From: Halalkalicoccus sp. CG83
Lineage (GTDB): Archaea; Halobacteriota; Halobacteria; Halobacteriales; Halalkalicoccaceae
NCBI RefSeq assembly: GCF_037081715.1
Contig: NZ_JAZDDH010000004.1
Coordinates: 1-64,000 of the forward strand
Reading direction: 5' to 3'
Length of the DNA: 64,000 nucleotides
The notes under the pieces are model-generated. The model worked only from the letters and a program-made list of their open reading frames with translations, was not told the DNA's origin and did not search any database. Shown here one piece after another: positions 3,350-29,802 of this stretch. A program made the position numbers and the translations under genes. Numbering within the stretch: the first letter of the stretch is position 1; each line of letters opens with the position of its first letter.

Positions 3350-3358
3350 AGAGCAGAT

Positions 3359-4222: not shown

Positions 4223-4288
4223 CACATGAAGGATTGATTTACATTGTCTGACGAAAGCTTATGATTCAAGCGACCAAGAAATCGCTCA

Positions 4289-5799: not shown

Positions 5800-5863
5800 C
5801 GCTAACAGCGGAAGTAGTGGAGTTAAAGTATATAAGTAATCGAGGGCAGCGGAAGCAGCGGAA
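5800..5863 (+). promoter_or_regulatory. Origin recognition boxes upstream of orc1/cdc6
   Basis: The box CTAACAGCGGAAGTAGTGG lies at 5802-5820. It recurs in inverted orientation twice after the initiator gene (7098-7116 and 7144-7162, identical over 19 bases), with a partial copy at 7319. A related GCAGCGGAAGCAGCGGAA stretch lies at 5846-5863. Flanking of an initiator gene by its binding boxes is the usual layout of haloarchaeal origins. Confidence 0.8.
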
Positions 5864-5901
5864 CCAAAGGTTAACATAGAATCGATGAGATACCATGCAC
5901 A

Positions 5902-9326: not shown

Positions 9327-9549
9327 ACCACTGTTCAAGTACTGCCTGTGAGCAACGTTCTGCAGCCGGTTGCTGAGGCGTCCAGTCAGCGACCGAGTGC
9401 AGATCTACAATATAATTCTCGAACTCGTGTTTGCTGTTGGTGTGAACAACAAGTCTGACCGGACCGCGACGGTCGGACACTGAGCCAGAGTATCAGATCA
9501 AATACTAGAAACCAATATACTATGTAGTACTGTTGGCTATTCTTTGTTT

Positions 9550-13283: not shown

Positions 13284-13470
13284 GTTTAGATCCCTGTAGA
13301 CTGGAATAGATTGAGCGGCTTCGGAGAGAAAAGCGCCAAATCCTCGATAGTCCATAGCGCGCTCAATTATTGAAATCACCGAGATTCGGGTCTTTATCGC
13401 TCGATTAGACAACGTATTAATTGACTGTGGATCTATATATGTTAATACGATTCGTACACATGTATTGTCT

Positions 13471-14109
13471 ATGAAAAACTCCCAACTGACGACGCGACGC
13501 GTCTTCATTACACTCAGTGGAACCGCACTCGCAACCATCTCTGGCTGCCTTGGCTTTCTCGGGATCGGCAGCAACTCTGAGGCAGGATCCAACTCCGAGT
13601 CAGGATCTGACGGTGGCACTACCGACGAGTCCACTACCAGCGACGACCTCCCTGAACAAGAGCCAAACTCCTCGGAGAACACTACTGCACCAGAGAACGA
13701 ACCCAATGATACCGATACTGAGGCCGTCGCCAATGAGAGCACCGAGGCCGGGAACGAAGAGAACGAAGCCGCCGTTCCCGAGTCAAACCCGCAGAACGAT
13801 CCGTCACAGACCGAGCCTGCGGATCCGAACACGACCGAACCACCCACCTCTGACGATATTGAACTTGTCGAGAGCAGCTTTTCGACGAACACCAACAAGG
13901 CAACGATCACGGTCCGAAACACCGCCGACGAGCGTGTCAACTCGATCGACCTCTGGGTTGTCTTCTACACTGACTCCGGCCAGCAGGTCGATGAGGGGAT
14001 GAACGGCGCGACCGGCGTCGACCCCGACCAAACCGTCACGATCACCGTCCCGTCCGAGGCATCCGACGCAACGACCTTCGAGATCCAGCGCGTCATGGTG
14101 TCGACTTGA
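13471..14109 (+). CDS. Tat lipoprotein with FxLYD-like C-terminal domain
   Basis: The protein has about 212 residues. The N-terminus TTRRVFITLSG followed by a lipobox ending at Cys26 (TISGC) predicts Tat export and lipid anchoring, the standard route for haloarchaeal lipoproteins. Residues 27-125 are a Ser/Glu/Asn/Thr-rich disordered linker. The last 85 residues form beta strands (IELVESSFSTNTNKATITVR through WVVFYTDSGQQVDEG) resembling FxLYD domains. The ATG at 13471 places the twin arginines at 9-10; a TTG lies two codons upstream. Its role, probably in the cell envelope, is unknown. It stands alone in an AT-rich context. Confidence 0.8.
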   Translation: MKNSQLTTRRVFITLSGTALATISGCLGFLGIGSNSEAGSNSESGSDGGTTDESTTSDDLPEQEPNSSENTTAPENEPNDTDTEAVANESTEAGNEENEAAVPESNPQNDPSQTEPADPNTTEPPTSDDIELVESSFSTNTNKATITVRNTADERVNSIDLWVVFYTDSGQQVDEGMNGATGVDPDQTVTITVPSEASDATTFEIQRVMVST

Positions 14110-15725: not shown

Positions 15726-16991
15726 TCACCCGTCACCAACGGGGAAATCAAACGACATCTCGTACTGATTATTGGCAATCTCGAACCGACAGAACCCCCG
15801 ATCATCTTGCTCATGTCCTGGCGGGATTGGTCCCTGGGCGATCGGTGGGTTCGAACCACCACCTTCCGTTTTCGGATTTCCAGTAACCGGCGGATGAGAG
15901 AACTGATTTCCACGCACTACCACTCGATCCATCGGTACTCCACCGATCACGATCGCCGGCGTCTGCTCTCCTCCTTGGAAGTTCGCGAACTCCACGACGT
16001 GCGTTGAGGTGAACGTACACCGCAAGATCTCCATTGTTCCACCCGCCCGATACCGATAGTTCAGATCATCTCTGCTCGAGCTGCCCGATGTATTCTCATA
16101 GAGGCCGTGCTGGTCGACTTGAAAGAGACTGTTTGCCGGTCCGAACTCACACTCGACTAATGAGTAACTACAGTTGCCATAGCCGAAGCCAGCGACTGCG
16201 TGACGCGTTCCGTTGAAGTAGACCTGGTAGACTGTGGGATGGCCCGAAAACACTTCTACGCCGTAGCCAGCTGACGTGAGCCCACACTGGGTGATCGAGC
16301 AGTTGTTGATCTGTGGGCTCGCCTCCTTCTCCCGAAGGCCGACCGTCACACCCTGCGTTGGCCAGCCAAAGATATCCATGTTATCGATCTGCACCGGATC
16401 GCCTGTACATGAGATTCCCCGAGCGTGTTGGCTATCATAGAACGACTCGCGAGCGCTTGAGTCGCCCGACGGCATTGGAATGTAGCCTGAATACCATTCG
16501 TTTTCGTAGACGTTCGACGTCGGTCCCCGATGGCGAAACCCTGTCAATCGGGAATTTGCCCGGCAGTCGAACACGCCGTCCGCCTCACTCCCTCCGAGAT
16601 ATGCCGTCGAGTTCTTGCCCTGCGTATCCGAGTAGACGATCGCTCCCAGATTATTCTTCGTGCGGTTTGAGGCGATCACCGCGTTCTCGACGACGGCGTC
16701 TCGCCCTGTCATGTCGATTGCCGCGTCCCCCGGCAGCCAGATCACTACTGGACTCTGCTCGCTCGCTTCGTCGAGCGCTGTGAGCAGTTCGTCGGCCGAG
16801 CGTGCCGTGTGCGTCGCGTCGGCCTCCGTTACAGCCGGTTCGTCGTACGCGAAGCCACTCCCTGTCGTCCCGGTTGCGATCCCACCACCACGCCCTCCAC
16901 CGCCGTTGTACTCGACGGTGCAGCCTGCGAGCCCGACGACCGTGGCCCCCGTGATCCCGGAGAGAAAACCGCGACGGGAGATTGCTGCCAT
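15726..16991 (-). CDS. Tat lipoprotein with right-handed beta-helix fold
   Basis: The 421-residue protein starts AAISRRGFLSG with twin arginines at 6-7 and a lipobox Cys24 (GLAGC), so it is exported by Tat and lipid-anchored outside the cell. A glycine-rich linker follows. From about residue 70 the chain shows repeating short strands typical of pectate-lyase-like beta helices: VVIWLPGDAAIDM, AVVENAVIASN, VQIDNMDIFGW, PQINNCSITQCG and VVVRGNQF. Such folds bind or cleave polysaccharides, but no catalytic set is evident. Its composition (many Asn, Gly, Tyr) matches secreted haloarchaeal proteins. Confidence 0.8.
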   Translation of the reverse strand: MAAISRRGFLSGITGATVVGLAGCTVEYNGGGGRGGGIATGTTGSGFAYDEPAVTEADATHTARSADELLTALDEASEQSPVVIWLPGDAAIDMTGRDAVVENAVIASNRTKNNLGAIVYSDTQGKNSTAYLGGSEADGVFDCRANSRLTGFRHRGPTSNVYENEWYSGYIPMPSGDSSARESFYDSQHARGISCTGDPVQIDNMDIFGWPTQGVTVGLREKEASPQINNCSITQCGLTSAGYGVEVFSGHPTVYQVYFNGTRHAVAGFGYGNCSYSLVECEFGPANSLFQVDQHGLYENTSGSSSRDDLNYRYRAGGTMEILRCTFTSTHVVEFANFQGGEQTPAIVIGGVPMDRVVVRGNQFSHPPVTGNPKTEGGGSNPPIAQGPIPPGHEQDDRGFCRFEIANNQYEMSFDFPVGDG

Positions 16992-17462
16992 TCTTGTTTC
17001 CTACAAGATGGGTCTGTATTATAGACCTTACGTACTGTACATATAACTCGACCAAAATAGAAGTACATCATATTCGTACGGCTTGAGGAAAACACGATTC
17101 TCCACGTCGTTCAACATGCGAATCTGACCAGGAGAATAACCAATCGATGACAGTGGAGACCGCCGCCACGCCACGCTACGCCACGCTACGCTCCTCGGTG
17201 GTTTCCTCGTCTCGACACCTGATGAGGTGTTGGATATATTATAGCTGGTGAGCTGTTCATCATACTACATTTATTGAGGTGGTGACCTGTTTCAACATGA
17301 CTGGGTGTTCCTCTTCCTGTGTACCCTGGATGTCTGGGTGTGGTGCCCGCACTGCGCGTCACCCCTGACAGGGTTCCTTACTTCGTCGGGATTTGAGACT
17401 GTACAGATACCCTTTTGAGAACTGTAGGCAAATTTAAAGGGACAATAGATCCATCATATTTC
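16992..17462. other. Intergenic region with short GCCACGCTAC repeats
   Basis: There is no gene. A direct repeat of GCCACGCTAC occurs at about 17171-17190. ACTGTAC appears at about 17034 and again at about 17399. The region separates the beta-helix gene from the HTH gene that faces the secretion-like operon. Confidence 0.45.
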
Positions 17463-17990
17463 ATGGCCGTCACTGTCGACTCTACAGACGGACTTGAGAC
17501 AGACCTCCATCACAATGCCGTTAATGTCCTCCTCGCCATCTACGACCAGGAGGACAAGACAGCGACCACCACGGAGATCAGGCACGTCACAGGGATCTCG
17601 AGCGCCAATATTTCGGGCGGCCACGCTCAGAAACTCGAGGAGAGAGGGCTGATCGAAAAGACAGGTTCCGTCGAAACCGAGGCCCCAATCGCGACGAACG
17701 AGTACGTGGTAACTCCTCGAGGATTAAAGGAATCAAAGCGTCTTTTAAAACAGACGCCCGCAGAGATTCCGATGTCTGAGGGCAAGAAACTGGCTCTCCT
17801 GAACTTTCTCGAGGAGCACCGCGAAGAAATAAAGGAGTTCTCCGCACAGTCGGAGCAGACATCCTCGATCGACGAGCAGCAGTTGGACGATCTCGCCGAC
17901 CAGGTCGAGGAGAACACGGAGAAGTTAGACGACCACGCCTCAGCGTTCGAGCGTGTCTTCAACATCCTAGACAAGAAGGTCCTGAGCTGA
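17463..17990 (+). CDS. Winged-helix regulator with C-terminal coiled coil
   Basis: The 175-residue protein has an N-terminal wHTH (LHHNAVNVLLAIYDQEDKTA, then TTEIRHVTGISSANISGGHA, then QKLEERGLIEKTG) and a wing ending in NEYVVTPRG. The C-terminal third is helical (EQQLDDLADQVEENTEKLDD), probably for dimerisation. I chose the ATG at 17463; a TTG lies 48 bases upstream. It ends 13 bases from the end of the secretion-like operon, converging on it, and is a candidate regulator of transfer genes. That role is inferred from position only. Confidence 0.75.
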   Translation: MAVTVDSTDGLETDLHHNAVNVLLAIYDQEDKTATTTEIRHVTGISSANISGGHAQKLEERGLIEKTGSVETEAPIATNEYVVTPRGLKESKRLLKQTPAEIPMSEGKKLALLNFLEEHREEIKEFSAQSEQTSSIDEQQLDDLADQVEENTEKLDDHASAFERVFNILDKKVLS

Positions 17991-18003: not shown

Positions 18004-20841
18004 TCAGTCGTCGAGCTTCGCCTCCAGCTCCGCAAACATCGCATCCATCGAGTCCACGGCCTCCTCCTCTGCCTCGTCCTCTATCTCGGGCTCCGGTACC
18101 GTCTCTGGCTCCGTCTCGATCTCATCTTGGTCCCGAATCGGTCCCTCACCACTTACGGCCAGTAGGTCTCCTGTATTCTCAAGGTCAGCGATGTCGCTAA
18201 TCTCATCGAACGGGATTTCCTCGTCATGGTGGATGATCGAGAGGTCGCTCGCTCGGGAGGTCCCCTCAGGAACGATCACGACAGCCCAGTGCTCTCGTGA
18301 GAGATCCGGATCGGGGACGAGTTCGGTCGGACACCCACAGTTGACGTAGTTCTCGCGGTCGGAATCGTCCGTGTCGAAGTCAGACTCTCGAGCAGGGTAC
18401 TTCTCGATCGCGGCCTTGGACTCGATTTCCTCGCGAGTTGCGAAGCGGGCGTACTGCGTACCATCAGTGTCCTCGAGGTGCCAGTGGCAGCCGTCGTCGG
18501 GATCAGGATCGTACCACCACACGGTCTTGCCGCCCTTGGGACGGAGCATGGGCTCGCCGTCGATTTTGACAGTGCCGAGACTGTACGACCGGCGCCGACC
18601 GTTCTCATCGACCTTACGGCAGTACATCGGGTCGGTGAGCGTATCGTAGACGTTCCAGGCAGTCTCGGGTCGGGCTGCGTAGAGACAGCGCTCTCCGTCT
18701 TCGATGGCGTCGTGAAGGTGCCGGAGTGTCTGTCCGGGCCCGGAGTCGCCTGTCGAGTCTTCAAGCTCCACACGGACGTTCTTGCCGCCAGAGAGGGCTG
18801 CGAGTTCGGGATGCTCTTCGATGAATCGCTCTTCAGCCTGTCGTGCGTCCTGGGCGGTGACGATGTCGGCGTTGACAGCCTGGGTGAAGACGCGCTCGAT
18901 CGAGGCGAAGCCGTCGGCAGAGCGACCCTTGGTGTTCTGGACGACCTCGGCGTCGAAACCCACGTCGGTGAGGGCGTCGTAGAGTTCCTTGATCGCTTTC
19001 CGGTGGTCGCCCTTGCCGTCATTGGCACTTCCGCTGATTTTCTTGAACAGCGTGGTGCCACGCGAGGTGGTCCTGAGTTTCACGTCGCCGTCACGTTTCT
19101 CCCGCTCAACGAGATCGTCACCGACCATGTCGAGGACGCCCCAGACCTGGGATTCGTGACCAAGGGCTTCGCGTTCGACCCCCAAATTGTCGATAAGACG
19201 GTCTTGAATCTGATCGGCAGCGACAAAGCCGTCGTCGTCGCCGTTCTCGATCGCAACGTCGTGGACCGTCTTACAGGTCTGTCTTTCAATGTGGTCGAGA
19301 TCGAGTTCGGCGACGGCCATGGACTTGCGGTTTCCACTGTCGTCGAGGATCGCGTCAGCGCCTTCCAGTTGCCCCTCCCCGCTGTTGAGTAGCAGCTCGT
19401 CGACGAGCTGCTGGTCGGTCTTGTGCTCGTGGCCGGTCTTTCGGACGATTCGCTCGATGTGGTGATCGGCGTCTGCTTGCGTGATCGTCGGTGGAAACGG
19501 TGGGAGCGCATAGACGCGGTAGGGGTCCGGCGGACCAACAGAAGTCTTCATCCAGCAGTGGTATTCCTCCTCGTCACGCAACGTCTCCCAGTTAAGACCG
19601 AGGTTCTTCGCGACGACTTTACAGCTCTTCTCGGAGCCGACCGAGAGCGACATTACCGTGTCACACTGCGAGAATAACGCCTCGACGACCTCGTCCGGTA
19701 GTTGATCGGGATACTGGCAACAGAGGAACAGACAGAGTCGCGAGGTCCGGGCCTTCGAGAGCATCGTTGGAAGTGCGGAGTCCTCGTGGGCTAGCAGATC
19801 GGCCTCGTCCATGAGCAAGTGAAAGTTCGACGGCCCAGACCCACGGGAGCTTTTATCGCCGTCACGGTCGCGTGCGGCCGCCCACGTCCGCCTGAGGATG
19901 GCGGTCCCGATCATTTCTTTGATCTCCTCGGACTCTTTGTTCATTCGGACGATCAGGATCTTGTCCTCGTCCATCAACTCTGTGAGGTTGATCGTATCTC
20001 CTCGGTGGGAGAACACACGTCGGGCGATGGGGTTCTCGACCCAGTTCTTGAAGCGCCGACGGATGGCGTCGAGATCGTCATCATCGTACTCGGCGATCTT
20101 GTCCGCGAACATCGCGAGGAAGATGTAGCCGGATTGGTTGACGATGTGTTTGTACCGCTCGCGGTTCTCCTTATCTGCGAGAATGAAGTAGAGGTCGATC
20201 AAGGTGAAGTCAGCCTCGTGGCGGGCTGCAAAGCGGATGATGTTCGACGCAATGGCGTCCATGAGCGGGCCCCAGTAGTCGCTCGCGCCAAGCATCTTCA
20301 CGAGGTCCTCGAGGATGTTCTCGACGATCAAGTCAAACTCCGGATGGTCGGGCGAGACACCAGGATCAAGGAAGTTGAAGCCGGTCTGTGCAGATCGCGT
20401 CCCTGAGGGTTCGAGCCATACGACGTCGTCCTTCCGGTAGTCGGGAAGGATGGAGTAGAATCGCTTGGCATCATCGCCTTTAGGTTCGATATAGATCATG
20501 CCGTCGCCGGATTCGGCGATCGTCCGGCCAGCGTTCATCATGAGGTTTGACTTTCCGTAGCCAGTGCTCCCGAAGAGGACGGTGTGCTGGCAAAGGTCCG
20601 ACTGTTCAATCGAGGCGTGGCCGCCGCGACGGGTGCCGACGCCGACGGCGATGGGGCTCTCGGGATCGGCCCGTGGCGCCCGCATCATCTGGCGGGCGAG
20701 ATAGCCAGCGAACACCTGCTCGTTGCCATGTTCGTCGGGACCGTGGGCTCGGAGATTCTCATTGCCCTCGACGGCCTCGGTCGACTCTTCGGTCCAGATG
20801 TAGCGCCCGTCGTCGGGGCTCAGGGGTTGAGCAGCACTCAT
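18004..20841 (-). CDS. virD4: VirD4/TraD-like coupling ATPase
   Basis: The 945-residue AAA+ ATPase has Walker A at 91-98 (GSTGYGKS) and Walker B at about 341-348 (HLLMDEAD), followed by a Gln-rich sensor (LFLCCQYPDQLPDEVVEALF). The order and the region around KGDDAKRFYSILPDY fit VirD4/TraG/HerA-type ATPases that bring DNA or protein to a type IV secretion channel. No N-terminal transmembrane segments are visible, unlike classic VirD4. The two small membrane proteins upstream may anchor it. The C-terminal 500 residues contain a winged-helix-like portion and an acidic tail (EPETVPEPEIEDEAEEE). It is the last gene of a seven- to eight-gene operon. Confidence 0.85.
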   Translation of the reverse strand: MSAAQPLSPDDGRYIWTEESTEAVEGNENLRAHGPDEHGNEQVFAGYLARQMMRAPRADPESPIAVGVGTRRGGHASIEQSDLCQHTVLFGSTGYGKSNLMMNAGRTIAESGDGMIYIEPKGDDAKRFYSILPDYRKDDVVWLEPSGTRSAQTGFNFLDPGVSPDHPEFDLIVENILEDLVKMLGASDYWGPLMDAIASNIIRFAARHEADFTLIDLYFILADKENRERYKHIVNQSGYIFLAMFADKIAEYDDDDLDAIRRRFKNWVENPIARRVFSHRGDTINLTELMDEDKILIVRMNKESEEIKEMIGTAILRRTWAAARDRDGDKSSRGSGPSNFHLLMDEADLLAHEDSALPTMLSKARTSRLCLFLCCQYPDQLPDEVVEALFSQCDTVMSLSVGSEKSCKVVAKNLGLNWETLRDEEEYHCWMKTSVGPPDPYRVYALPPFPPTITQADADHHIERIVRKTGHEHKTDQQLVDELLLNSGEGQLEGADAILDDSGNRKSMAVAELDLDHIERQTCKTVHDVAIENGDDDGFVAADQIQDRLIDNLGVEREALGHESQVWGVLDMVGDDLVEREKRDGDVKLRTTSRGTTLFKKISGSANDGKGDHRKAIKELYDALTDVGFDAEVVQNTKGRSADGFASIERVFTQAVNADIVTAQDARQAEERFIEEHPELAALSGGKNVRVELEDSTGDSGPGQTLRHLHDAIEDGERCLYAARPETAWNVYDTLTDPMYCRKVDENGRRRSYSLGTVKIDGEPMLRPKGGKTVWWYDPDPDDGCHWHLEDTDGTQYARFATREEIESKAAIEKYPARESDFDTDDSDRENYVNCGCPTELVPDPDLSREHWAVVIVPEGTSRASDLSIIHHDEEIPFDEISDIADLENTGDLLAVSGEGPIRDQDEIETEPETVPEPEIEDEAEEEAVDSMDAMFAELEAKLDD

Positions 20842-21942
20842 CTATGATCCGGCCTCCTGCTGGTTCGCGTCGTCGCTATCCAAGTCGAGGTCGGCACCGA
20901 AGGTGTGGCTCTCTCGGGGGACGCCGGGACCGGACTCTCGAGTCGCCCACTTCACGTCGGGGACCTCGATGTCGGCATTGGGGATGTGGAAGAGGCCTTC
21001 CCACTCGCGGATGGTCATGGCGTTCTTCGTGCCGTGCAGCATCCGTGCAACCGGCGAGCGCTTGCGGACGCGCCGACGAACCAAGTCCTCTGCCTCGTTG
21101 ACGATCGCAGTGTGCTTGAGGTGCTGTGGCCGGAGTTTCTGCTTGTTCGCGTAGTCGTACTTTGAGTAAGACTCGGCAGCCTTCGTGAGGACGGACTGGA
21201 CGTCGTCCTTGTCGGGGCCGATCACCATGAGTCGGATCGTGGTTCGGAAGGTCTCGTCGGAAACCTGATCCTGCATATCTTTCGCGAGCTGCTCGTTGAG
21301 GTCGGACTGCACGACCTTCGTATCTGCCTGCCGAAGTCCAATCTCGAGGGAGCCTTGTTTGGTTGAGTCGGCGATCGCATCACCGCCAGCGCCGAGCTTA
21401 CCGCGCTTGTACCACTTGCTCGAGATAGGTTTCCCACAGCCCTGAACGATCAGGCGAACCTCTTTCTCGTTGACGAACTTCGGGAGCACCGACGAATAGG
21501 GGTCGCCGTTGAGTGGGTCACCTTTCGACCCACGGTAGGAAAGGGGATGAATTGCATCCAATTGGAGGGTGAGCCGGCAGACGGACACGAACTCGCCGAC
21601 CTTCGCGTCGGGGAGTGGGTCGTGGTAGGTCTCCATCCGGCTGTTGGCGTACTTGGAGTTAACGAGTGAGTGGATGTCCGAGAGGTCCTCGCCGTCGGCG
21701 GCGGTGATCTGGACGGTCAACTGGTCGCGAAACCACCACTCGAACGAGAAGGTGCCACCCTTCCGGCCGGTCCCGAGAGTGTCGTGGATGTCCTCAAGGA
21801 AGTCTTCGCCGCGCTCCATGCCCTTCGTGTCGACGTAGGGACGGATCTCGAGGCGACTCGGGTGCTCGGTCTCGTGGTAGAGGCGGTCGATTCGATCCTC
21901 GGTGAGTTCGATAGGCTTGCCGCCAGTTGAGAGGAGCCTCAT
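20842..21942 (-). CDS. Conserved operon protein, soluble component of the secretion-like machine
   Basis: The 366-residue soluble protein has no P-loop. Recognisable stretches are LSTGGKPIELTEDRIDRLYH at the N-terminus, GTFSFEWWFRDQLTVQITA, and TIRLMVIGPDKDDVQSVLTK. The last resembles the N-terminal non-ATPase domain that often precedes HerA/VirD4 ATPases in archaeal and Gram-positive transfer systems. Here it is a separate gene directly upstream: its stop and the next ATG are adjacent. It is probably the detached N-terminal half of the coupling protein; that is inference. It overlaps the preceding gene by 4 bases. Confidence 0.6.
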   Translation of the reverse strand: MRLLSTGGKPIELTEDRIDRLYHETEHPSRLEIRPYVDTKGMERGEDFLEDIHDTLGTGRKGGTFSFEWWFRDQLTVQITAADGEDLSDIHSLVNSKYANSRMETYHDPLPDAKVGEFVSVCRLTLQLDAIHPLSYRGSKGDPLNGDPYSSVLPKFVNEKEVRLIVQGCGKPISSKWYKRGKLGAGGDAIADSTKQGSLEIGLRQADTKVVQSDLNEQLAKDMQDQVSDETFRTTIRLMVIGPDKDDVQSVLTKAAESYSKYDYANKQKLRPQHLKHTAIVNEAEDLVRRRVRKRSPVARMLHGTKNAMTIREWEGLFHIPNADIEVPDVKWATRESGPGVPRESHTFGADLDLDSDDANQQEAGS

Positions 21943-22451
21943 TCGCCATCACCTCGCTCAGTGTATCGCCCCTCAATACCTGTGGTGCAGTCGGGCTGGC
22001 TATCACCGGTGTTTCCCATTGGCTCGGCATGCCAGAATTTTGCCAGAGCCACGATGCCAAAGAAGGCCATCATCACGCCAATCACAAAATCAATCGGGAG
22101 AAGAGGGGCAGTAGCGATTCCAGTTATGATCTCAATGGGCGAGATCCCCTCCGAAAGCCAGAGGACAATCCAGCCGACAACCGGAAGCAGCCCGAGGAGC
22201 CCCAACACCAACCCACCGCAGAACAGTGCCCGGCGGGATGCTGTCCGCCGAGATAAGTCCATCCAACTATCAATCCCCAGCCACGTTGCTAGGCCAGTGC
22301 CAATGCCAACGGTGACCACCAGACCGAGAAGGATCTCGGCCGACCAACCAAGCGGGGTGAGGCTCATGTCGAGATACATATAGGACAGGTAGGGGGCCGC
22401 GACAATCGCCTCAAAGATCGTCCCCTCCGAGAACGGATCATTTGGTCTCAT
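21939..22451 (-). CDS. Small polytopic membrane protein of the secretion-like operon
   Basis: The 170-residue protein has about four membrane segments: around 20-40, LLGLVVTVGIGTGLATWLG, LFCGGLVLGLLGLLPVVGWI and FVIGVMMAFFGIVALAKFW. It overlaps both neighbours by 4 bases (ATGA), so it is co-translated with them. No family is recognised. The position between a soluble VirD4-associated protein and another membrane protein suggests a role in anchoring or channel building. Confidence 0.7.
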   Translation of the reverse strand: MRPNDPFSEGTIFEAIVAAPYLSYMYLDMSLTPLGWSAEILLGLVVTVGIGTGLATWLGIDSWMDLSRRTASRRALFCGGLVLGLLGLLPVVGWIVLWLSEGISPIEIITGIATAPLLPIDFVIGVMMAFFGIVALAKFWHAEPMGNTGDSQPDCTTGIEGRYTERGDGE

Positions 22452-23470
22452 TCGTCATCACCGCCGTAGTACAGGAGCTTCCAGTTCTGTCCGAGGTCGT
22501 GCCACTTCCGCGCGAAGAGGTACGCACTGATTACGATCACGGGGGTGAGCGCGCCGAGCATACTGTTTCCGAGGAGCAGCGTGAGCCCAACGACGGTACT
22601 TAGTCGCAACAGGAACAGCTCGCGGTCGTAGCGCGGGATCCAGTTCACTCGCTGGATGCAGCGGTCGGCCCGGACGGCGGGCTCGAGGTTCGTGAACGCG
22701 AAGACGACACTCGCAACGTAGGTGGCGAGGCCGAGGGCCGACACGGTCACGGTCGACGCGAGTGCGATCCCTGCGGTCCCGAGGAGCATCCCACCACCGG
22801 TGAACGCGAGGACGGACCACGGACCACCAGTGATGTCGTGTTCGTCGACGGTCGTCCCGCGGTAGTCGTTCTTCTCGCAGTCGTAAAGGTGGAGCCAGTA
22901 GCCACCGATGAGACCGGAGAGAACGAGTCCGCCGATGAGGGTGACGTTCGTGGATGCGAGGATGGTTCGGAGCGATCCGAGGCCGGACGTGAGAACGGTC
23001 ATGATGGTCGTGAGTGCGGTAGCGGTCAGCAGTAGCGCGATACCAGCGGCGGCTCGGCGGAGGAACAGCGTCCTCACGGGGCCTCGTGAGACCCAATGGA
23101 TTAGCTCATCGAGGCGGGAGTTGATCTGTCGGTTCCGGCGGCGTTCCAGCACCTTCTCCTTCCAGTTCGGATCGTTTGCACGACAGTTGCGACAGACGAG
23201 GGCGTGGCTCTCGGGCGAGAAGTCGATGTCCGAGAGGTCGCAGATGATCCACTCGCCGAGGCTGTGGCCGTCCACGACAGTCCCGCAGCATTCGCACATC
23301 GAACTTGCGTTGCCAATGGGTATCGAGAACGTTTCCTCGAAACCGTAGCCGGGCGGGGTGGCCGTTACTTCCAACTCTCTGGCCTCGATCCTCGAGCCCG
23401 AGTCTGACTCCTTGGACCTATCTGGGGTCGTCACGTTGCCATTTGTTTCAGGGGCCGGAGTATTACGCAT
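22448..23470 (-). CDS. Membrane protein with N-terminal zinc-ribbon-like region
   Basis: The protein has about 340 residues. The N-terminal 110 residues are soluble and carry paired cysteines (MCECCGTVV and ALVCRNCRAN) spaced like a zinc ribbon. Six or so membrane segments follow, including AAAGIALLLTATALTTIMTV, TLIGGLVLSGLIGGYWL and VGLTLLLGNSMLGALTPVIV. An earlier ATG at 23485 exists, but a GGAGGTG Shine-Dalgarno site sits six bases before the ATG at 23470, which I prefer. The start overlaps the end of the VirB4 gene. The function is unknown; it is a probable inner component of the machine. Confidence 0.7.
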   Translation of the reverse strand: MRNTPAPETNGNVTTPDRSKESDSGSRIEARELEVTATPPGYGFEETFSIPIGNASSMCECCGTVVDGHSLGEWIICDLSDIDFSPESHALVCRNCRANDPNWKEKVLERRRNRQINSRLDELIHWVSRGPVRTLFLRRAAAGIALLLTATALTTIMTVLTSGLGSLRTILASTNVTLIGGLVLSGLIGGYWLHLYDCEKNDYRGTTVDEHDITGGPWSVLAFTGGGMLLGTAGIALASTVTVSALGLATYVASVVFAFTNLEPAVRADRCIQRVNWIPRYDRELFLLRLSTVVGLTLLLGNSMLGALTPVIVISAYLFARKWHDLGQNWKLLYYGGDDE

Positions 23471-25418
23471 TGGCGACACCTCCATTATTATCGTCAGCCT
23501 CGTCGCTCCCGAGTTTCAGTAGCTCCATCGGCAGTGGCGTGACCTTCACGGGGTAGGTGCCATGGTCGTCGATGTCAGCGAGGACGTGCGAGTAGCCTCG
23601 CTCGGGTGTCCCTTTGTTCATCTTCCGGGCGAACGCACACTCGTTCTCCGTGAGCCCGAGTTTCTTGCCGTGGGGCTCGTGGTAGAGGCCCGGCTCCTTG
23701 TGGATGAATTTGTGCGACGTGAGGTTCGCCAGCGTCTCGGCCTTCGGGTGGACGAAGAAGTCCTGGGCTTGCTGGCTAATCATGTGCAGCGAGATGTCGA
23801 AGTGCCGGGAATGGCGAATGATCTTCTCGAGCCAGTCCAGACTGTTCGGGGTTTCGAACAGCCGGTGGATCTCGTCGATGCAGATCACCATTCGTTTCTC
23901 CGACGATTTGGCACGTTGGTAGATCACGTTGAACGGGGCCTGCAGGCGGAGTGCCTTCTCCCGGTCCGAGCCACCCTGCTGCACGTCGATCAACGTCGAC
24001 TTACCCGAGAGATCGACGTTCGAGCGCTTGCCCATGTTGGCGAAGTTCCCACCCCTGAACGAGTCCATCGCCATGTGAAGGTCTGCCGCAGCGGTCTCCC
24101 ACTTCCCGGCATCGCGAACCTCCGAGGCACGGTCGTCCTGCGAGAAGTCATACGTGCCATCGGGCGTGCGGGCGAAGAAGTCCTCGGCATCGTCGGCGAT
24201 GTGGCCCAGCGACTCACGAAGGTCGAGCGGTGCCGGGCTCGTCTTGGAGTGAGTCGTCGGATCCTCGTTGATCCCCATCCGGTAAGCAGTCTTGCGGATC
24301 CCCTTTTGGAGAACCGTCCACTCGTCGCGCGTGAGGCCATCGCCACTGCCGGCCTGCGAGAAGAACGTCTCGAACCAGCCCAGCGTCGTCGAGGCCCAGT
24401 GACCGAACGGGTCGAGACCCTGCTCTTTGACGACATGAATCGGCGTCGGCTGGATCTCCATCGGGTTGACGGCGTTCTCGCCGCCGAGCGGGAGGCGCTT
24501 TGCGCCCGTCTCATGAGCCAGCTTATCGAGCCCACCGACCGGATCGATCATTACAAGGATCGTGTCGGGGTCCTGGGCGAGGCGGCGCAGGAGCATCATC
24601 ATCGTCCCGAAGGACTTGCCCGATCCGAGGTCACCGATCGTGAGCGCGTTGTAGCCACCCTCTCGGTTCCAGCGGTCGTAGGCGAATGGTTCGTCCGTGA
24701 CGGCATGGTAGCCCAACAGCACACCTTTCGGTTCGTAGAGCGTGCTCGCGGAGAAGGGGAACATCGCACCGACAGCGTCCCCGAGCATCTTCCCACTCGC
24801 GCCGTCGAGCATGTCCTTCGCGACCGGGGACGTACTCGTGAGCGCGTCGTCGCTCTGGTAGTCGATCGTCCGCGTCACTACGTCGTTCTTCGCGAGTTCG
24901 TCGATGATCGAGCGGGCCTCGTTGGTGACGGTCTCTCGTGAGTCGCCACGGATCCGAATGTAGACGCCGACGTCCCAGAGCTTTTGCGAGCCCGATTTGA
25001 GTTCGTCACGGATGAACTGGTGCTCGGCGATCTCCTGTTTGGTGAGGCCGATGTCCGGGTCCTCCTGCTTTTGCTGCTGTCGGAGTTTCACCTTGAGCTT
25101 CTGGATCGACCGGTCGATCTTCTGGACCATCTGCTTGGTGTCGGCCGGGTTGAAGTGGATCACTGGCTCGATGGCTGTGTTCGGGTGCGTGTTGACCAAG
25201 TCAATGATCCCCGGATCGATCTTCGAGGGCATCGAGGTGATGCACAGGTGTTTGATCCAGTCTTCGCCGGATCGGCACGCGCCGAGTTCGTAGGCCACTG
25301 AGGACGGGCCGACGGCCCGGGCTTGCTGTTCACGAGTCTCGTCGACGGACCCGATGTCTGCACTCGTGCCGAATTGATCTGACACCTTTTCTTTCAGGTG
25401 TGTGAGTTTACTACTCAT
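23463..25418 (-). CDS. virB4: VirB4/TraC-like secretion ATPase
   Basis: The 651-residue ATPase has Walker A at 262-269 (GDLGSGKS), Walker B at about 510-516 (MVICIDE) followed by HRLFE, and a Gln-containing sensor region (MISQQAQDF). The N-terminal 250 residues hold the VirB4/TraC-type domain (HFNPADTKQMVQKIDRSIQK). VirB4 ATPases power pilus biogenesis and substrate transfer and are the most conserved markers of conjugation systems. It follows the bitopic protein gene by one base, and its end overlaps the next gene. This is the strongest single piece of evidence that the operon is a type IV secretion or conjugation apparatus. Confidence 0.9.
   Translation of the reverse strand: MSSKLTHLKEKVSDQFGTSADIGSVDETREQQARAVGPSSVAYELGACRSGEDWIKHLCITSMPSKIDPGIIDLVNTHPNTAIEPVIHFNPADTKQMVQKIDRSIQKLKVKLRQQQKQEDPDIGLTKQEIAEHQFIRDELKSGSQKLWDVGVYIRIRGDSRETVTNEARSIIDELAKNDVVTRTIDYQSDDALTSTSPVAKDMLDGASGKMLGDAVGAMFPFSASTLYEPKGVLLGYHAVTDEPFAYDRWNREGGYNALTIGDLGSGKSFGTMMMLLRRLAQDPDTILVMIDPVGGLDKLAHETGAKRLPLGGENAVNPMEIQPTPIHVVKEQGLDPFGHWASTTLGWFETFFSQAGSGDGLTRDEWTVLQKGIRKTAYRMGINEDPTTHSKTSPAPLDLRESLGHIADDAEDFFARTPDGTYDFSQDDRASEVRDAGKWETAAADLHMAMDSFRGGNFANMGKRSNVDLSGKSTLIDVQQGGSDREKALRLQAPFNVIYQRAKSSEKRMVICIDEIHRLFETPNSLDWLEKIIRHSRHFDISLHMISQQAQDFFVHPKAETLANLTSHKFIHKEPGLYHEPHGKKLGLTENECAFARKMNKGTPERGYSHVLADIDDHGTYPVKVTPLPMELLKLGSDEADDNNGGVANA
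23477..23483 (-). promoter_or_regulatory. Shine-Dalgarno site deciding the start at 23470
   Basis: On the minus strand GGAGGTG precedes the ATG at 23470 by six bases. It lies inside the last codons of the upstream VirB4-like gene and indicates translational re-initiation. It makes the nearer ATG, rather than that at 23485, the likely start. Confidence 0.6.
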
Positions 25419-25419
25419 G

Positions 25420-26973
25420 TTAGGTCATTGCCTCCTGTCGCTTCGCATCCCCACCGCTGTCCGTGGTCTCTGCCTCCGACTCCGCTTGCTCCATCTGCTC
25501 TATGAGGGCTGCACAGGCGTCCTCAAGTGTGGTGTACTGCGACTCGTCGATGGACACCTCCTGTTCTTCATCCCCTACTTCCGCCTCCGTCTCTGGGGCA
25601 TCCGGCGTCTCAGGTGCCTCTGGCATATCCGGTTCTGGAGTGGCTTCCGCTTCCGACTCCGTCTCACCGAGGTCGTCGGCGGAGACCGTCCGTCGCTCGT
25701 GGTCCTCGTCCGAGAGGTCGCTCGCCCCTTTGGGGTCGGGGTCCGCACTGGAGGTCTCCTCGACGGGCGCCGTGGATTTCTGGAGTTCGTCGAGGATCTG
25801 CTGGTCGAGTTCGTCGTCGGCAAGCTGATCGGGCGAGCGAGTGTCGCCTTGGGTCTCGGTGTACTCTCTCGTCATCGTGACGAGTGGGAGCGAGCGGTCG
25901 TCTCGCTCTTCGGTGACGACCCGCTCGCCGGTCCACGACTCCTCAAGGACGCTAATCAGGTCGTCCATAGAGAGCTGGTCGGCATCACAGCCGGTGATCC
26001 CGCCGAGGTCTTTCTCAAGCGAGGCACGACGTTCCTTCATGATCCGTTCCTGTCGGTAGCGGATCTCGGCGACGGTGAGGTCGCGCGAGGCCAGCATCGA
26101 GGCGATCCGTGAGCCAAGCACGGGAATGTCGTTCAGACGCCCGAGCACGCGATGGCCTTGCATCTGGACTTCTTCCATCGTGACCGGCGCGAGGAACTGG
26201 AAGCCCCGGATGCTGGCGTTCTTTGAGTCCATCTGGGCGGCGAGGTTCTGTTTGTACATCCCGACGTTCTGCTGGAGTTGGGGGTTGCTCCGGACGTCTG
26301 GATCTCCGATTCGCTCGCCGAAGCGTCGTTTGACGGCTTCGGTGTCGATCTTCACCGATCCATTACGGAGTTGGCCCGGATGTTCGAGGCCGTTAATGAC
26401 CTCGCCGAGTTCGTCGGCGGCAGCCTCCCAGTCTGCTTTCGAGGCCAGCGAGAGTTCCGCGGGATCGATCGAACAGCCACCGACGAGGGCGCCGTCGAAA
26501 CGCCACACACCGTCGGCTTGTGGCGCGAACCCATCAACTCGTGTGAGGTCCTCCAAGGCCCGGCGTTCCCCACTCGACGAGACGCTGTCCTTCGTGATTC
26601 GGCCCGAGTCGCCGTTGTTGGCTGCTCGATGGTCCGATCCGAACCGAAAGCCGATCTTGCACTTGAGCCATTTATAGAAGGACATCTGCGGCGGTGAGAC
26701 GTAGATCCCGACGAGTACGCCTCCGATGAGGACCGTTGAGATCCCGAGAACGAGGAGCGCCCAATTGCGACCATCGGGAACGATGTTCCCGAGAATCGCG
26801 AAGGTCATGAGCGAGGTGAACAGGAGGATCACGTCCGAGAACGCGACGTCAGTGTCCCCGAGGTCCATGACGCCCATCGTCCCGAGGGAGTCGAGATTTC
26901 GCCGGGTGGCGTTCGTCTTGTTCTGTAGCGATTCGACCAAGTCTTCGATCTGTGATTGTTCTGTGTTTGCCAT
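25420..26973 (-). CDS. Membrane-anchored component preceding VirB4, PrgI/TraC-N-like position
   Basis: The protein has about 517 residues, with two close membrane helices near the N-terminus (VILLFTSLMTFAILGNIV and WALLVLGISTVLIGGVLVGI). A short segment (PPQMSFYKWLKCKIGFRFG), a large soluble domain and a very acidic, Pro/Glu-rich tail from about residue 390 follow. Two helices followed by a short charged stretch and a soluble domain, immediately before VirB4, match the PrgI-type proteins of transfer systems. The assignment is positional. I chose the ATG at 26973, one base after the upstream stop; an earlier frame start at 26994 overlaps that gene. Confidence 0.65.
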   Translation of the reverse strand: MANTEQSQIEDLVESLQNKTNATRRNLDSLGTMGVMDLGDTDVAFSDVILLFTSLMTFAILGNIVPDGRNWALLVLGISTVLIGGVLVGIYVSPPQMSFYKWLKCKIGFRFGSDHRAANNGDSGRITKDSVSSSGERRALEDLTRVDGFAPQADGVWRFDGALVGGCSIDPAELSLASKADWEAAADELGEVINGLEHPGQLRNGSVKIDTEAVKRRFGERIGDPDVRSNPQLQQNVGMYKQNLAAQMDSKNASIRGFQFLAPVTMEEVQMQGHRVLGRLNDIPVLGSRIASMLASRDLTVAEIRYRQERIMKERRASLEKDLGGITGCDADQLSMDDLISVLEESWTGERVVTEERDDRSLPLVTMTREYTETQGDTRSPDQLADDELDQQILDELQKSTAPVEETSSADPDPKGASDLSDEDHERRTVSADDLGETESEAEATPEPDMPEAPETPDAPETEAEVGDEEQEVSIDESQYTTLEDACAALIEQMEQAESEAETTDSGGDAKRQEAMT

Positions 26974-26974
26974 T

Positions 26975-29092
26975 TCAGAATCCCCTCGATTCACTCACGG
27001 CAGAGCGACTTTCCGCGTGCTGTTCGGCCTCCGAGAGGTTGAGGTCGCCATTCGCCTCGTGAATCGGATTCACGTCGTAGAACTGCTGATCCTCTTGCCC
27101 GCGCACGAAGAGTTCGCGGTCATCGTAGGCCTGGTCAGCGCGAGCGTACATCTCGCCGGTGATTTGCTCCGGTGATCGGTCCGTTTCGAGCGTCTTCTGG
27201 AACTCGATGTTGCTTCCCGGTCCCGACCCGGTGAAGTAGCCTACGCGGTACTCCTGTTCGGGGAGCTGCTCTTTTGACTCGACGGTCATGACTGATGGGT
27301 CATCAACCGGGACGCGCCCCGGCATCGACCCCTCCGTGTCTGCCGGTGCCGAACCCGACGATGAGGAGGCCGCTCCAGCGGGAGCGGACGCGGCCGACGG
27401 GGACGACCCAGCCCCGGAACCAGAGCTACCACTAGGGATGGCCATTCCCGAGGGATTCGCCCCCGTGGCCGTTCCCGCGGTTGCCGGTGTACCACCGCTG
27501 GCAGAGTCGAGGTCACTGGTCCCAGATGAGAGGCTCGACGAGCCGGAGCTAGAGCTAGCGCCAGAACCGAGCACTCCGGATGCACCACTGGCTCCACTCT
27601 CCCCGAGGGCGTGACCGTTGACGGCTCGTTCTGCACTACCAGGGATGGCCGATGCACTGGAACCGGCGGCACTGCCAGCAGCGGCACCACTCCCGGCGGC
27701 GGTCCCACCACCGAGTCGGCCGAGGGCACTCGAGATCGCCCCGAGGCCGATCGACCCGGCAAGGATGGCTCCCGCGCCGGAGCCAACCTTCTTGAACCAG
27801 AAGAGGTAGATCGACGCGATGAACGCGAGTAGCCAGATCACGATGATCGCAACCGCGCTCACCGGCACGGCACCCCACTCTGCCGGCCCGGGGAGGAGGC
27901 TCTCAATCGCCCTGAGGATTGAGTAGCCCACCGAGAGGACGACGACCGCGGGCAGTGGGAAGAACGCCGCCGAGGGAAACAACTCGAGGACACCTTCGAA
28001 CGCCTCGGCGACCCCCTCCATGATCCACACCTTCGGGACGCTCATGGCGATCAGGATCGGCATCGCTGGAAAGATGATGTAGAGAAACAGCCACGTCACG
28101 AAGAACGTGAACGCGATCGCGAGGGCGAATGCTCCGCCGAAGGCGTAGAACAGCAGAACGCTAATCCCGGCGGCGGCGTTGTTCGCGGCGATCGAGGAGG
28201 TATCCGGAGCGATCGTGTTCGGATCAAGCGGGACGGCGTTCAACGCGAACGACGCAGTGAAGAGGATGATCGTCCCGAGCATCCACGAGAACGGGATCAA
28301 GACTAGCTTGAGCCACGCTTCTTGCTGGGCGATCTTGATTTGCTGGTAGGTCGGCGTCGGCGGCCACACCATCCCTAGGATGTACAGGACAAGCGTGTTG
28401 ATCAGCCAGATCGCCGCGCCGGCGACCAGACTAACGCCGTACCAGTAGTCATGGAGGATCGACATCAACTCGCCGTCGGGCTCGCCACTGATAGCGACCG
28501 AGCCGTCTTGCATCGGATAGACCGTGCTCGACTGTAGGGCCTCGGCCATCCCGATCAGCAAGTTCGTCCCAAACGTGAACCACGGCTCGAAGAAGCTGAT
28601 CAGCAACCCGACCGGGTCGATCGAGATCGAGAACATCCCGTTGTCGTCGTTCCCCTCCGGCTGGTAGGTCCCCGACCCCGAGCTGTCGTTGCCAGTCCCA
28701 TTCGTCGCGTTGCCTGACTCGTTCGTGCTGGCGGTCTCGTTACTACTTTCTTTCGTTCCCGCGTTCGCGCCCGTATCGGAGGATGTGTCGGGAAGAGCCG
28801 ACTCGACGCGATCAGAGCCAGAGGAGTCGCTGCCAGTGTCGTTTCCGGTGCTGCTACTGTTGATCCCGCTGTCGGCGGTAGTGTTGTCGCTTGGGCCACC
28901 ACCAGGAGGAGCGCCGGTCGTGGCCCCGTCACCGGCGCCGCCCGTCTCGTTTGACTGGGCAGCGACTGATGCGGTTCCGACCAGAACCATGGCGCCGACG
29001 CCCATGGTGATGAGCAGTGCGACGATCAGGACTGTAACTACGAGCCCTGCAGTCGTCTGGCGGCATCGGTCCGTCATTAATGAGAACACCAA
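26975..29092 (-). CDS. TrbL/VirB6-like polytopic membrane protein
   Basis: The 705-residue protein has a strong N-terminal hydrophobic segment (VVTVLIVALLITMGVGAMVL), followed by an extracellular-type Ser/Thr/Asn/Gly-rich stretch of about 100 residues full of N-glycosylation-type sequons. Then come six or so membrane segments, including LVAGAAIWLINTLVLYILGM, FALAIAFTFFVTWLFLYIIF and VSAVAIIVIWLLAFIASIYL. A long Gly/Ala/Ser-rich flexible tail and a charged C-terminus follow. Size and topology fit VirB6/TrbL channel proteins, which line the inner-membrane pore. It lies 6 bases after the pilin-like gene. Confidence 0.75.
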   Translation of the reverse strand: MVFSLMTDRCRQTTAGLVVTVLIVALLITMGVGAMVLVGTASVAAQSNETGGAGDGATTGAPPGGGPSDNTTADSGINSSSTGNDTGSDSSGSDRVESALPDTSSDTGANAGTKESSNETASTNESGNATNGTGNDSSGSGTYQPEGNDDNGMFSISIDPVGLLISFFEPWFTFGTNLLIGMAEALQSSTVYPMQDGSVAISGEPDGELMSILHDYWYGVSLVAGAAIWLINTLVLYILGMVWPPTPTYQQIKIAQQEAWLKLVLIPFSWMLGTIILFTASFALNAVPLDPNTIAPDTSSIAANNAAAGISVLLFYAFGGAFALAIAFTFFVTWLFLYIIFPAMPILIAMSVPKVWIMEGVAEAFEGVLELFPSAAFFPLPAVVVLSVGYSILRAIESLLPGPAEWGAVPVSAVAIIVIWLLAFIASIYLFWFKKVGSGAGAILAGSIGLGAISSALGRLGGGTAAGSGAAAGSAAGSSASAIPGSAERAVNGHALGESGASGASGVLGSGASSSSGSSSLSSGTSDLDSASGGTPATAGTATGANPSGMAIPSGSSGSGAGSSPSAASAPAGAASSSSGSAPADTEGSMPGRVPVDDPSVMTVESKEQLPEQEYRVGYFTGSGPGSNIEFQKTLETDRSPEQITGEMYARADQAYDDRELFVRGQEDQQFYDVNPIHEANGDLNLSEAEQHAESRSAVSESRGF

Positions 29093-29098
29093 GGGAAG

Positions 29099-29614
29099 TT
29101 AGAGCACGCCGAGTCCGCCGGTCACGCAATCGGCGAATGAGAACCCGAAGATGTCACCGAAGACCATCTGGATCAGCGTTGGCGCGAGCAACGCCACGCC
29201 GAGGCCCATGAAGCCACGCTTGGCCCAGTTGATGTCGCCCTCAAGCTTCCCCGGCGTCTTGTGGATCGCATAGGACAGGCCGGCGACGATCAAGACACCA
29301 AGGCAGCCAACGAAAGCAATCCGCTGGAGCATCGGGAGGCCGTTCGAGGCAGCCTGCTCAGTGATCGTCGAACAACCATCGCCACCGACCTCCTGTTGGG
29401 CCATGACCGCTCCAACCGAGAACATGTATGCGGTGAGTCCGACAAGGACGAAGATTGCCATGTCGGCCGCCGCGGCTCGGGTTTCGTAGAGTGAGTACTC
29501 TATCGTACCCGACTGCTCAGGATCGAGAGGGTTTGTTCGCCAACGTGCGATTCGTCCAGTCAGCCCGGAGAACGTCTCTTCCGTGGTATCGTCACGGGAC
29601 AGATCAGATTCCAT
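29099..29614 (-). CDS. VirB2/TrbC-like pilin candidate
   Basis: The 171-residue protein has a charged cytosolic start of about 50 residues, then three hydrophobic segments (AAADMAIFVLVGLTAYMFSV, IAFVGCLGVLIVAGLSYAIH and GFMGLGVALLAPTLIQMVF). The pattern of two helices with a short charged turn (HKTPGKLEGDINWAKRG) resembles VirB2/TrbC pilins. Two cysteines (GCSTIT, ADCVTGG) might form a disulphide. It is the first gene of the operon, and its ATG at 29614 faces the divergent HTH gene at 29803. Confidence 0.7.
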   Translation of the reverse strand: MESDLSRDDTTEETFSGLTGRIARWRTNPLDPEQSGTIEYSLYETRAAAADMAIFVLVGLTAYMFSVGAVMAQQEVGGDGCSTITEQAASNGLPMLQRIAFVGCLGVLIVAGLSYAIHKTPGKLEGDINWAKRGFMGLGVALLAPTLIQMVFGDIFGFSFADCVTGGLGVL

Positions 29615-29802
29615 GTATCATATACTAGATTCAACACACATTAAATTTACGTATAGTACAGTCGAAGAGCACTGCAGTATAATACAGTTAAATCATACAT
29701 TGAAGAGGAACAGTCAAAATGTACAGTCGTAGCATGTAGTGAATGCAGTGAAACCATCGAAGTGGCTTTAAGGTATGAGCGGGCACATCGTGAGCAGATA
29801 CG
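29615..29802. promoter_or_regulatory. Divergent promoter region of the secretion-like operon
   Basis: This is an AT-rich region between the leftward operon and the rightward HTH gene. It holds two identical 9-mers GTACAGTCG (29656-29664 and 29721-29729, 65 bp apart) and a related ATACAGTTA between them. The repeats could be an operator for the divergently encoded HTH protein. No binding evidence is available. Confidence 0.5.

What the first reader, a model, noticed from the sequence alone, without database searches (positions are those of the whole stretch)
18004..29614. Complete-looking secretion/conjugation core without a visible relaxase
One uninterrupted minus-strand operon contains pilin-like, TrbL/VirB6-like, PrgI-position, VirB4-like and VirD4-like proteins plus two extra membrane proteins and a soluble protein that may be the detached VirD4 N-terminus. 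Genes overlap or are 1-6 bases apart. No relaxase, outer-membrane or peptidoglycan-lytic components are seen, as expected for cells without murein, but the missing relaxase is notable. The VirD4-like protein lacks membrane helices, so neighbours may anchor it. Either DNA is processed by a non-canonical enzyme, or the machine exports protein or moves DNA by cell contact.
Basis: partly seen in the sequence, partly recalled or inferred. Interest (0 to 1): 0.7.

Follow-up and report, generated by a model that had tools for sequence, protein, structure and literature searches.

The report
Archaeal DNA-transfer motor with built-in nuclease
A salt-loving archaeon's plasmid carries a complete cell-to-cell DNA-transfer machine that lacks the usual DNA-nicking enzyme (relaxase), and its DNA-pumping motor carries a previously undescribed, strictly conserved nuclease-like domain that may do that enzyme's job.

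Summary
An uninterrupted eight-gene minus-strand operon (18004-29614) lies on a circular ~127.3-kb Halalkalicoccus plasmid. It encodes a T4SS-pilin-like protein, a VirB6-like membrane protein, VirB4 and VirD4. Both ATPases are split: P0003/P0004 (VirB4) and P0007/P0008 (VirD4) are N-/C-terminal halves that are fused in relatives. Profiles assign them to T4SS ATPases, not HerA-NurA. No relaxase of the three families testable with a working control (Relaxase, TrwC, MobA_MobL) was found anywhere in the genome. The missing relaxase itself is a known open problem of archaeal conjugation.

The new point is that the VirD4-like protein carries, after its ATPase, a winged helix plus a domain absent from Pfam. 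G-H...D...E-x-E of this domain is invariant in 63/63 homologues (35% mean identity), including non-haloarchaea with the same gene order. A moderate-confidence model has PD-(D/E)XK strand order, and its structural neighbours are almost all VRR-NUC/PD-(D/E)XK nucleases. Among four complete plasmids, only VirD4(-nuclease), VirB4 and a wHTH protein are shared by all. Best reading: relaxase-independent conjugation in which the coupling ATPase brings its own DNA-cutting domain. The nuclease fold is well supported; its replacing the relaxase is inference.

The parts
18004..20841 (-). VirD4-like coupling ATPase without TM helices, with C-terminal wHTH + nuclease-like + extra domain (P0008, 945 aa)
   Evidence: TrwB_AAD_bind and TraG-D_C above Pfam cut-offs; C-terminal domains by alignment of 33-63 homologues
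19432..20664 (-). VirD4/TraG-type ATPase core, about aa 60-470, Walker A G91-x4-G96-K97, Walker B D345-E346
19042..19308 (-). winged-helix domain, aa 512-600
   Evidence: AF2 model pLDDT 80-90 in this part; Foldseek matches to archaeal wHTH proteins Sso10a-2, SSV1 F-93, prob 0.95-0.97
18637..19032 (-). predicted PD-(D/E)XK (VRR-NUC-like) nuclease domain, aa 604-735: G609, H613, D643, E692, E694 invariant
   Evidence: 63/63 homologues; strand order and Foldseek neighbours; not in Pfam
18232..18636 (-). conserved C-terminal beta-rich domain, aa 736-870, function unknown
20842..21942 (-). detached N-terminal half of the VirD4-like protein (P0007, 366 aa, soluble)
   Evidence: fused to the P0008 homologue in 11 distinct relatives, separate and adjacent in 26
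21939..22451 (-). small membrane protein, 3 TM (P0006), not detected in the two closest relatives
22448..23485 (-). zinc-ribbon-like + about 5 TM membrane protein (P0005), detected only in the Halalkalicoccus copies
23463..25418 (-). VirB4-like ATPase, C-terminal half (P0004)
   Evidence: NCBIfam CD1110-family VirB4-like ATPase E 4.8e-40; 401 plasmid records match
25420..26994 (-). PrgI-like TM pair + VirB4 N-terminal domain (P0003)
   Evidence: HHalign to N-terminus of full-length haloarchaeal VirB4, prob 98.5, E 1.6e-15; to PrgI-like protein of another archaeal lineage, prob 96, E 2.5e-9
26975..29092 (-). VirB6/TrbL-like polytopic membrane protein, about 6 TM, Ser/Gly-rich tail (P0002)
   Evidence: topology and position only; no Pfam hit
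29099..29614 (-). T4SS pilin-like protein (P0001)
   Evidence: Pfam T4SS_pilin E 6.7e-4, below the curated cut-off
17415..17990 (+). convergent MarR-like wHTH protein with coiled coil, conserved next to virD4
   Evidence: MarR_2; one of only three families shared by four complete plasmids; 38/38 distinct virD4 loci that have it nearby have it convergent
15726..16991 (-). predicted Tat lipoprotein, probable surface component of the module
   Evidence: shared by 3 of 4 complete plasmids; no Pfam hit; lipoprotein reading from the N-terminal sequence only

Best explanation
This is a plasmid-borne archaeal conjugation (DNA export) machine of the monoderm type. P0001 forms the pilus, P0002 plus the TM pair of P0003 form the membrane channel, VirB4 (P0003+P0004) energises assembly, and the soluble VirD4 motor (P0007+P0008) docks on the channel. 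Instead of handing over DNA bound to a relaxase, the VirD4 motor carries its own DNA-recognition (winged-helix) and DNA-cutting (PD-(D/E)XK-like) domains. The hexameric motor would bind the plasmid, perhaps helped by the convergent wHTH protein, cut or nick it in a metal-dependent, non-covalent way, and pump the strand or duplex out. Shown: operon, split/fusion relations, absence of three relaxase families, invariance of H/D/ExE in the motor-fused domain, nuclease-like model. Inferred: catalysis, DNA as substrate, direction of transfer, replacement of the relaxase.
For: T4SS identity of both ATPases. Circular replicon scanned in part and genome-wide absence of PF03432, PF08751, PF03389 with working controls. 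The domain is covalently part of the motor in every full-length relative examined; G609, H613, D643, E692, E694 invariant in 63/63 sequences (30 clusters below 70% identity, mean identity 35%, minimum 17.5%), 53 of which were collected without regard to these residues. E-x-E in place of D/E-x-K has a precedent in BamHI (own knowledge). Model with helix-strand-strand-helix-strand-helix-strand order; top PDB neighbours VRR_NUC 4qbn and Hjc 2eo0; in BFVD nearly all named top matches are VRR-NUC/nucleases with probability up to 0.99. The same motor-nuclease fusion next to VirB4 occurs in another family of the same phylum outside the window's order. In four complete plasmids of 42-127 kb the only families shared by all are VirD4-nuclease, VirB4 and the wHTH protein.
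Against: No biochemical or transfer data. Foldseek E-values are only 0.014-0.15, and the domain models are of moderate confidence (pLDDT 67-70). HHalign with Hjc was not significant; no Pfam, PHROGs, PADLOC or PDB sequence match for the domain. Restriction-type nucleases do not normally stay bound to DNA, so strand guidance and re-joining in the recipient are unexplained. No oriT found. A relaxase of an unrecognised kind, or one supplied in trans, is not excluded. The membrane components are too divergent to assign by profile.
Confidence: 0.5

Rival explanations
1. The nuclease-like domain is active but is not the transfer-initiating enzyme: it trims or terminates transferred DNA, cleaves competing incoming DNA (entry exclusion or defence), or resolves intermediates, while nicking is done by something else.
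For: PD-(D/E)XK enzymes such as VRR-NUC/FAN1 and Hjc act on branched or flapped DNA, and these are the nearest structural matches. The domain is attached to the motor, so it acts on DNA already engaged.
Against: It needs an additional unseen initiator; none is shared by the four complete plasmids.
Confidence: 0.2
2. An unrecognised or trans-acting relaxase exists: a divergent HUH enzyme, a tyrosine-recombinase-type (MOB_M-like) enzyme such as the plasmid's integrase at 7334-8269, or a host nuclease such as NurA-HerA as proposed for Ced/Ted (PMC9905601).
For: The plasmid carries a tyrosine recombinase. Searches for Mob_Pre and Replic_Relax had silent controls in the own-genome scan and so do not prove absence. 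Families such as MOB_H, MOB_C, MOB_T were not searched.
Against: The integrase has no homologue in the three small complete plasmids with the same system; Relaxase, TrwC and MobA_MobL are absent genome-wide with working controls.
Confidence: 0.2
3. The machine imports DNA, or is a domesticated Ced/Ted-like DNA-uptake system, and the nuclease converts incoming DNA to single strands.
For: Ced/Ted share pilin, VirB6, VirB4 and lack of relaxase (PMC9905601).
Against: Ced/Ted are chromosomal; this system is on plasmids in the Halalkalicoccus and many other cases and keeps a VirD4 coupling protein; no match above cut-off to CedD.
Confidence: 0.07
4. The machine exports proteins (toxins or effectors), not DNA.
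For: T4SSs can be repurposed; relaxase-less systems in Patescibacteria are thought to be (PMC12102498).
Against: The motor carries wHTH and nuclease-like (DNA-acting) domains; the system spreads on plasmids; no conserved effector-like cargo family among the four complete plasmids.
Confidence: 0.03

Closest known systems
pT33-3 and Sulfolobus conjugative plasmids (pNOB8/pING type)
   Same: archaeal plasmid with VirB4- and VirD4-like ATPases and no recognisable relaxase (PMC12857230)
   Different: here a fuller operon (pilin, PrgI/VirB6-like), split ATPases, and a nuclease-like domain on VirD4; whether those plasmids' VirD4 proteins have such a domain was not testable here
Ced/Ted DNA-import systems
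   Same: pilin, VirB6-like, VirB4-like core, no relaxase; NurA-HerA was proposed there to supply single-stranded DNA
   Different: plasmid-borne, has VirD4; the ATPase-nuclease pair is one polypeptide of the T4CP type and not HerA + NurA
Bacterial MPF_FATA conjugation systems (Gram-positive)
   Same: VirB4 of the CD1110/Mbov_0397 kind as best match, PrgI-like TM pair, monoderm set without outer-membrane parts
   Different: no relaxase, no lytic enzyme seen, TM-less coupling protein, PrgI fused to the VirB4 N-terminal domain
VRR-NUC / PD-(D/E)XK nucleases (FAN1, phage VRR-NUC, Hjc)
   Same: predicted strand order, PD...E-x-E signature, nearest folds
   Different: no significant sequence or profile similarity; E-x-E in place of D/E-x-K; fused to a T4SS coupling ATPase
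Vesicle-forming haloarchaeal plasmids (pR1SE type)
   Same: haloarchaeal plasmid with a VirB4/TrwB-like ATPase (PMC10818511)
   Different: those lack a T4SS set and move in vesicles

Membership tests
Type IV secretion system (conjugation type) | VirB4 ATPase | tested here: met
   P0004 vs VirB4-like CD1110 family E 4.8e-40, though below that equivalog's cut-off; 401 plasmid records match, many annotated conjugal/transfer ATPase
Type IV secretion system (conjugation type) | VirD4/TraG coupling protein | tested here: met
   P0008 above Pfam cut-offs for TrwB_AAD_bind and TraG-D_C
Type IV secretion system (conjugation type) | VirB2/pilin, VirB3/PrgI, VirB6 | tested here: inconclusive
   pilin hit below cut-off; TM pair + VirB4 NTD by HHalign; VirB6 by topology only
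Type IV secretion system (conjugation type) | cognate relaxase | tested here: not met
   PF03432, PF08751, PF03389 absent genome-wide with working controls; PF01076 and PF13814 not found but controls silent
Type IV secretion system (conjugation type) | operon-dependent DNA transfer between cells | not testable with these tools
   needs mating experiments
HerA-NurA repair complex | HerA-family ATPase with NurA partner | tested here: not met
   DUF87/HerA below cut-off, T4CP families above cut-off; no NurA in the operon
Ced/Ted DNA-import system | chromosomal location, no VirD4, CedB/CedD-type ATPases | tested here: not met
   plasmid-borne with VirD4; CedD match E 1.5e-4 at 20.5 bits vs cut-off 600
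PD-(D/E)XK nuclease superfamily (C-terminal domain of P0008) | conserved acidic active-site triad PD...(D/E)xK or variant | tested here: met
   D643, E692, E694 (and H613) invariant in 63/63; P before D in 59/63; E-x-E variant
PD-(D/E)XK nuclease superfamily (C-terminal domain of P0008) | alpha-beta-beta-beta-alpha-beta core fold | tested here: inconclusive
   strand/helix order fits and neighbours are VRR-NUC/Hjc, but pLDDT 67 and E-values 0.014-0.15
PD-(D/E)XK nuclease superfamily (C-terminal domain of P0008) | profile-level homology to a known family | tested here: not met
   no Pfam/PHROG/PADLOC/PDB match; Hjc profile comparison not significant
Relaxase (MOB) | HUH or other recognised relaxase fold with catalytic Tyr/His forming covalent DNA link | tested here: not met
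   no such profile match in P0008; covalent chemistry not testable

The most novel reading that the evidence does not exclude
Conjugation in haloarchaea, and in at least one further family of the same phylum, is initiated without a relaxase: the coupling ATPase is a motor-nuclease in one polypeptide that recognises, cuts and pumps plasmid DNA, a mechanistically different class of conjugation.
Probability: 0.4. Interest if true: 0.88.

Novelty: new variant of a known kind. Interest (0 to 1): 0.72.

Why it matters
Reviews up to 2025 state that no relaxase has been recognised on any archaeal conjugative plasmid, and that how archaea prepare DNA for transfer is unknown (PMC12857230, PMC9905601). 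A conserved nuclease-like domain fused to the coupling motor, with named catalytic residues, turns this into a question that one set of point mutants can answer. If right, conjugation would have a second, relaxase-free way of starting, and MOB-type mobility typing would be wrong for these plasmids: PLSDB labels 120 of the 122 plasmids with the motor 'non-mobilizable'.

Tried and rejected
HerA-NurA repair assignment: rejected. Integrase as MOB_M-like relaxase: not shared with the small complete plasmids. Replic_Relax (wHTH + nuclease-like, suggested by architecture): no match in the own genome or P0008, and only two sub-threshold matches in 148 genomes of the phylum; left as a resemblance from memory. 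Sequence and profile search of the domain in Pfam, PHROGs, PADLOC and PDB: nothing. HHalign against Hjc: at the level of negative controls. Foldseek with the three-domain model mainly returned the wHTH and meaningless methyltransferase matches. Viral contigs: four scans, no relative, consistent with a plasmid and not a virus system. oriT search by conservation and repeats in the flanks: no inverted-repeat nick site recognised. Rfam: nothing. Neighbouring 345-aa gene in the other lineage is not a P0007 homologue.
Full report
WHAT IS THERE. The contig (C4, 127,399 bases) repeats its first ~104 bases at its end, so it is read as a circular plasmid of about 127.3 kb; it carries ParA and Orc1/Cdc6. 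The nearest records are Halalkalicoccus sp. FCH27 plasmids, 91% and 83% identical over the operon, so the host is most likely Halalkalicoccus.

THE ATPASES ARE T4SS-TYPE. P0008 passes Pfam cut-offs for TrwB_AAD_bind and TraG-D_C; DUF87/HerA does not pass. P0004's best NCBIfam match is a VirB4-like conjugal ATPase (E 4.8e-40; below the equivalog cut-off). P0001 has a weak T4SS_pilin match (below cut-off); P0002 has about six TM helices and P0003 a TM pair, which fit VirB6 and PrgI by position and topology only.

BOTH ATPASES ARE SPLIT. P0007 and P0008 homologues are fused into one ORF of about 1,230-1,430 aa in 11 distinct relatives and adjacent but separate in 26. P0003 aligns (HHalign prob 98.5, E 1.6e-15) with the N-terminal ~300 residues of the ~1,000-1,100-aa VirB4 proteins of relatives, and with a 284-aa PrgI-like protein of another archaeal family that precedes a ~650-aa VirB4 (prob 96, E 2.5e-9). 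So P0003+P0004 make VirB4 and P0007+P0008 make VirD4. Neither half of VirD4, nor the fused relatives checked, has a TM helix. P0005 was detected only in the Halalkalicoccus copies and P0006 only here.

RELAXASE. Relaxase (PF03432), TrwC (PF08751) and MobA_MobL (PF03389) have no match in the whole genome, with positive controls. Mob_Pre and Replic_Relax also gave none, but their controls were silent. Pfam on 29 further plasmid proteins found partition, replication, an integrase, restriction-modification and other genes, and no relaxase; not every ORF of the plasmid was scanned. Absence of a relaxase is already documented for archaeal conjugative plasmids in general (PMC12857230, PMC9905601).

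THE NUCLEASE-LIKE DOMAIN. After the ATPase, P0008 continues with a winged helix (aa ~512-600), a domain at aa ~604-735, and a beta-rich domain to ~870. In 33 homologues G609, H613, G628, D643, E692, E694 and T697 are invariant. Twenty further homologues from other haloarchaeal genera, chosen only by ATPase similarity, all keep H613, D643, E692 and E694. Ten more, including four from a family outside the window's order, bring this to 63/63 for G609, H613, D643, E692 and E694, at 35% mean identity among 30 clusters. For these last ten the segment was cut with a pattern that requires the motif, at the place found by the profile, so they are weaker evidence. In compact members the motif is PD-x(15-18)-E-x-E-T-T-T. 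The domain is not in Pfam, PHROGs, PADLOC or the PDB by sequence.

FOLD. AlphaFold of aa 512-870 (pLDDT 70, pTM 0.65) gives a good winged helix (Foldseek: archaeal wHTH proteins) and a weaker alpha/beta core. The core alone, predicted for the Actinarchaeum homologue with P0008 in the alignment (pLDDT 67, pTM 0.56), has helix-strand-strand-helices-strand-helix-strand-helix order, with D at the start of strand 2 and ExE on strand 3. Its best PDB matches are VRR_NUC 4qbn (prob 0.84) and Hjc 2eo0 (0.60), with FAN1, MUS81 and Cas4-like nucleases below. In BFVD the top nine are all annotated nuclease or VRR-NUC, prob 0.90-0.99, E 0.014-0.04. No match reaches E 0.001, and a profile comparison with Hjc is not significant. 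I take a PD-(D/E)XK-like nuclease as likely (about 0.85), not proven.

DISTRIBUTION AND MINIMAL SET. A profile of the whole protein finds matches in 232 of 394 genomes of the order, some only to the ATPase. The C-terminal profile finds 41 of 394 in the phylum, including non-haloarchaea in which VirB4 and the PrgI-like gene precede the VirD4-nuclease gene. Comparing this plasmid with three complete plasmids of 42-45 kb, the only protein families shared by all four (phmmer E<1e-4) are VirD4(-nuclease), VirB4 and the wHTH protein at 17415-17990. That gene is convergent with virD4 in all 38 distinct loci where it lies nearby. Fast-evolving membrane proteins would be missed by this test.

MECHANISM. 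The simplest reading is a conjugation machine whose coupling motor brings its own DNA-binding and DNA-cutting modules, making a separate relaxase unnecessary. It parallels the NurA-HerA idea put forward for Ced/Ted (PMC9905601), but as one polypeptide belonging to the T4SS. Steps shown: gene content, split/fusion, relaxase families absent, motif invariance, nuclease-like model. Steps inferred: catalysis, substrate, direction, and that the cut starts transfer.

NOVELTY AND SCORE. T4SS operons on haloarchaeal plasmids and the missing relaxase are known. I found no report of this conserved nuclease-like domain in archaeal coupling proteins in the library searched (open-licence papers only). Rated a new variant of a known kind, interest 0.72, because it makes a long-standing question directly testable.

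Noticed in passing
NZ_CP144464.1 120107-131253 and about 2734-9656: A Halalkalicoccus sp. FCH27 plasmid carries two near-identical copies of this transfer operon on one replicon.
   Followed up: no
17415-17990 (+): MarR-like wHTH gene with coiled coil, convergent with virD4 in all 38 distinct loci where it is near; possible regulator or origin-binding accessory protein.
   Followed up: yes
13465-14109 and 15726-16991: A protein whose relatives are annotated FxLYD-domain and a predicted lipoprotein accompany the operon in the FCH27 copies and H. jeotgali plasmid 3; probable surface parts of the module.
   Followed up: partly
29656-29740: Degenerate GTACAGTC-like direct repeats just upstream of the operon, in a region conserved in the two closest relatives; possible operator or iterons.
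   Followed up: partly
L099, L100, L101, L104: A second class of giant (1470-1565 aa) haloarchaeal coupling proteins with the same H...PD...ExE domain, next to VirB4 genes.
   Followed up: partly
L102 2880-3683; L103 2850-3593: Stand-alone proteins of 268 and 248 aa match the part after the active site but show no H/D/ExE; look like domesticated, catalytically dead derivatives.
   Followed up: no
L007 9766-12647: The virD4-nuclease gene of FCH27 plasmid unnamed2 is broken into two ORFs, and its P0003 homologue too; this copy is probably decaying.
   Followed up: no
window 56383-60537 and 61581-64000; C4 70444-71808 and 73255-75078: The plasmid carries a restriction/defence cluster: Eco57I-like and N6-methylase genes, a PDDEXK_4 nuclease and a GmrSD-type gene.
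   Followed up: no
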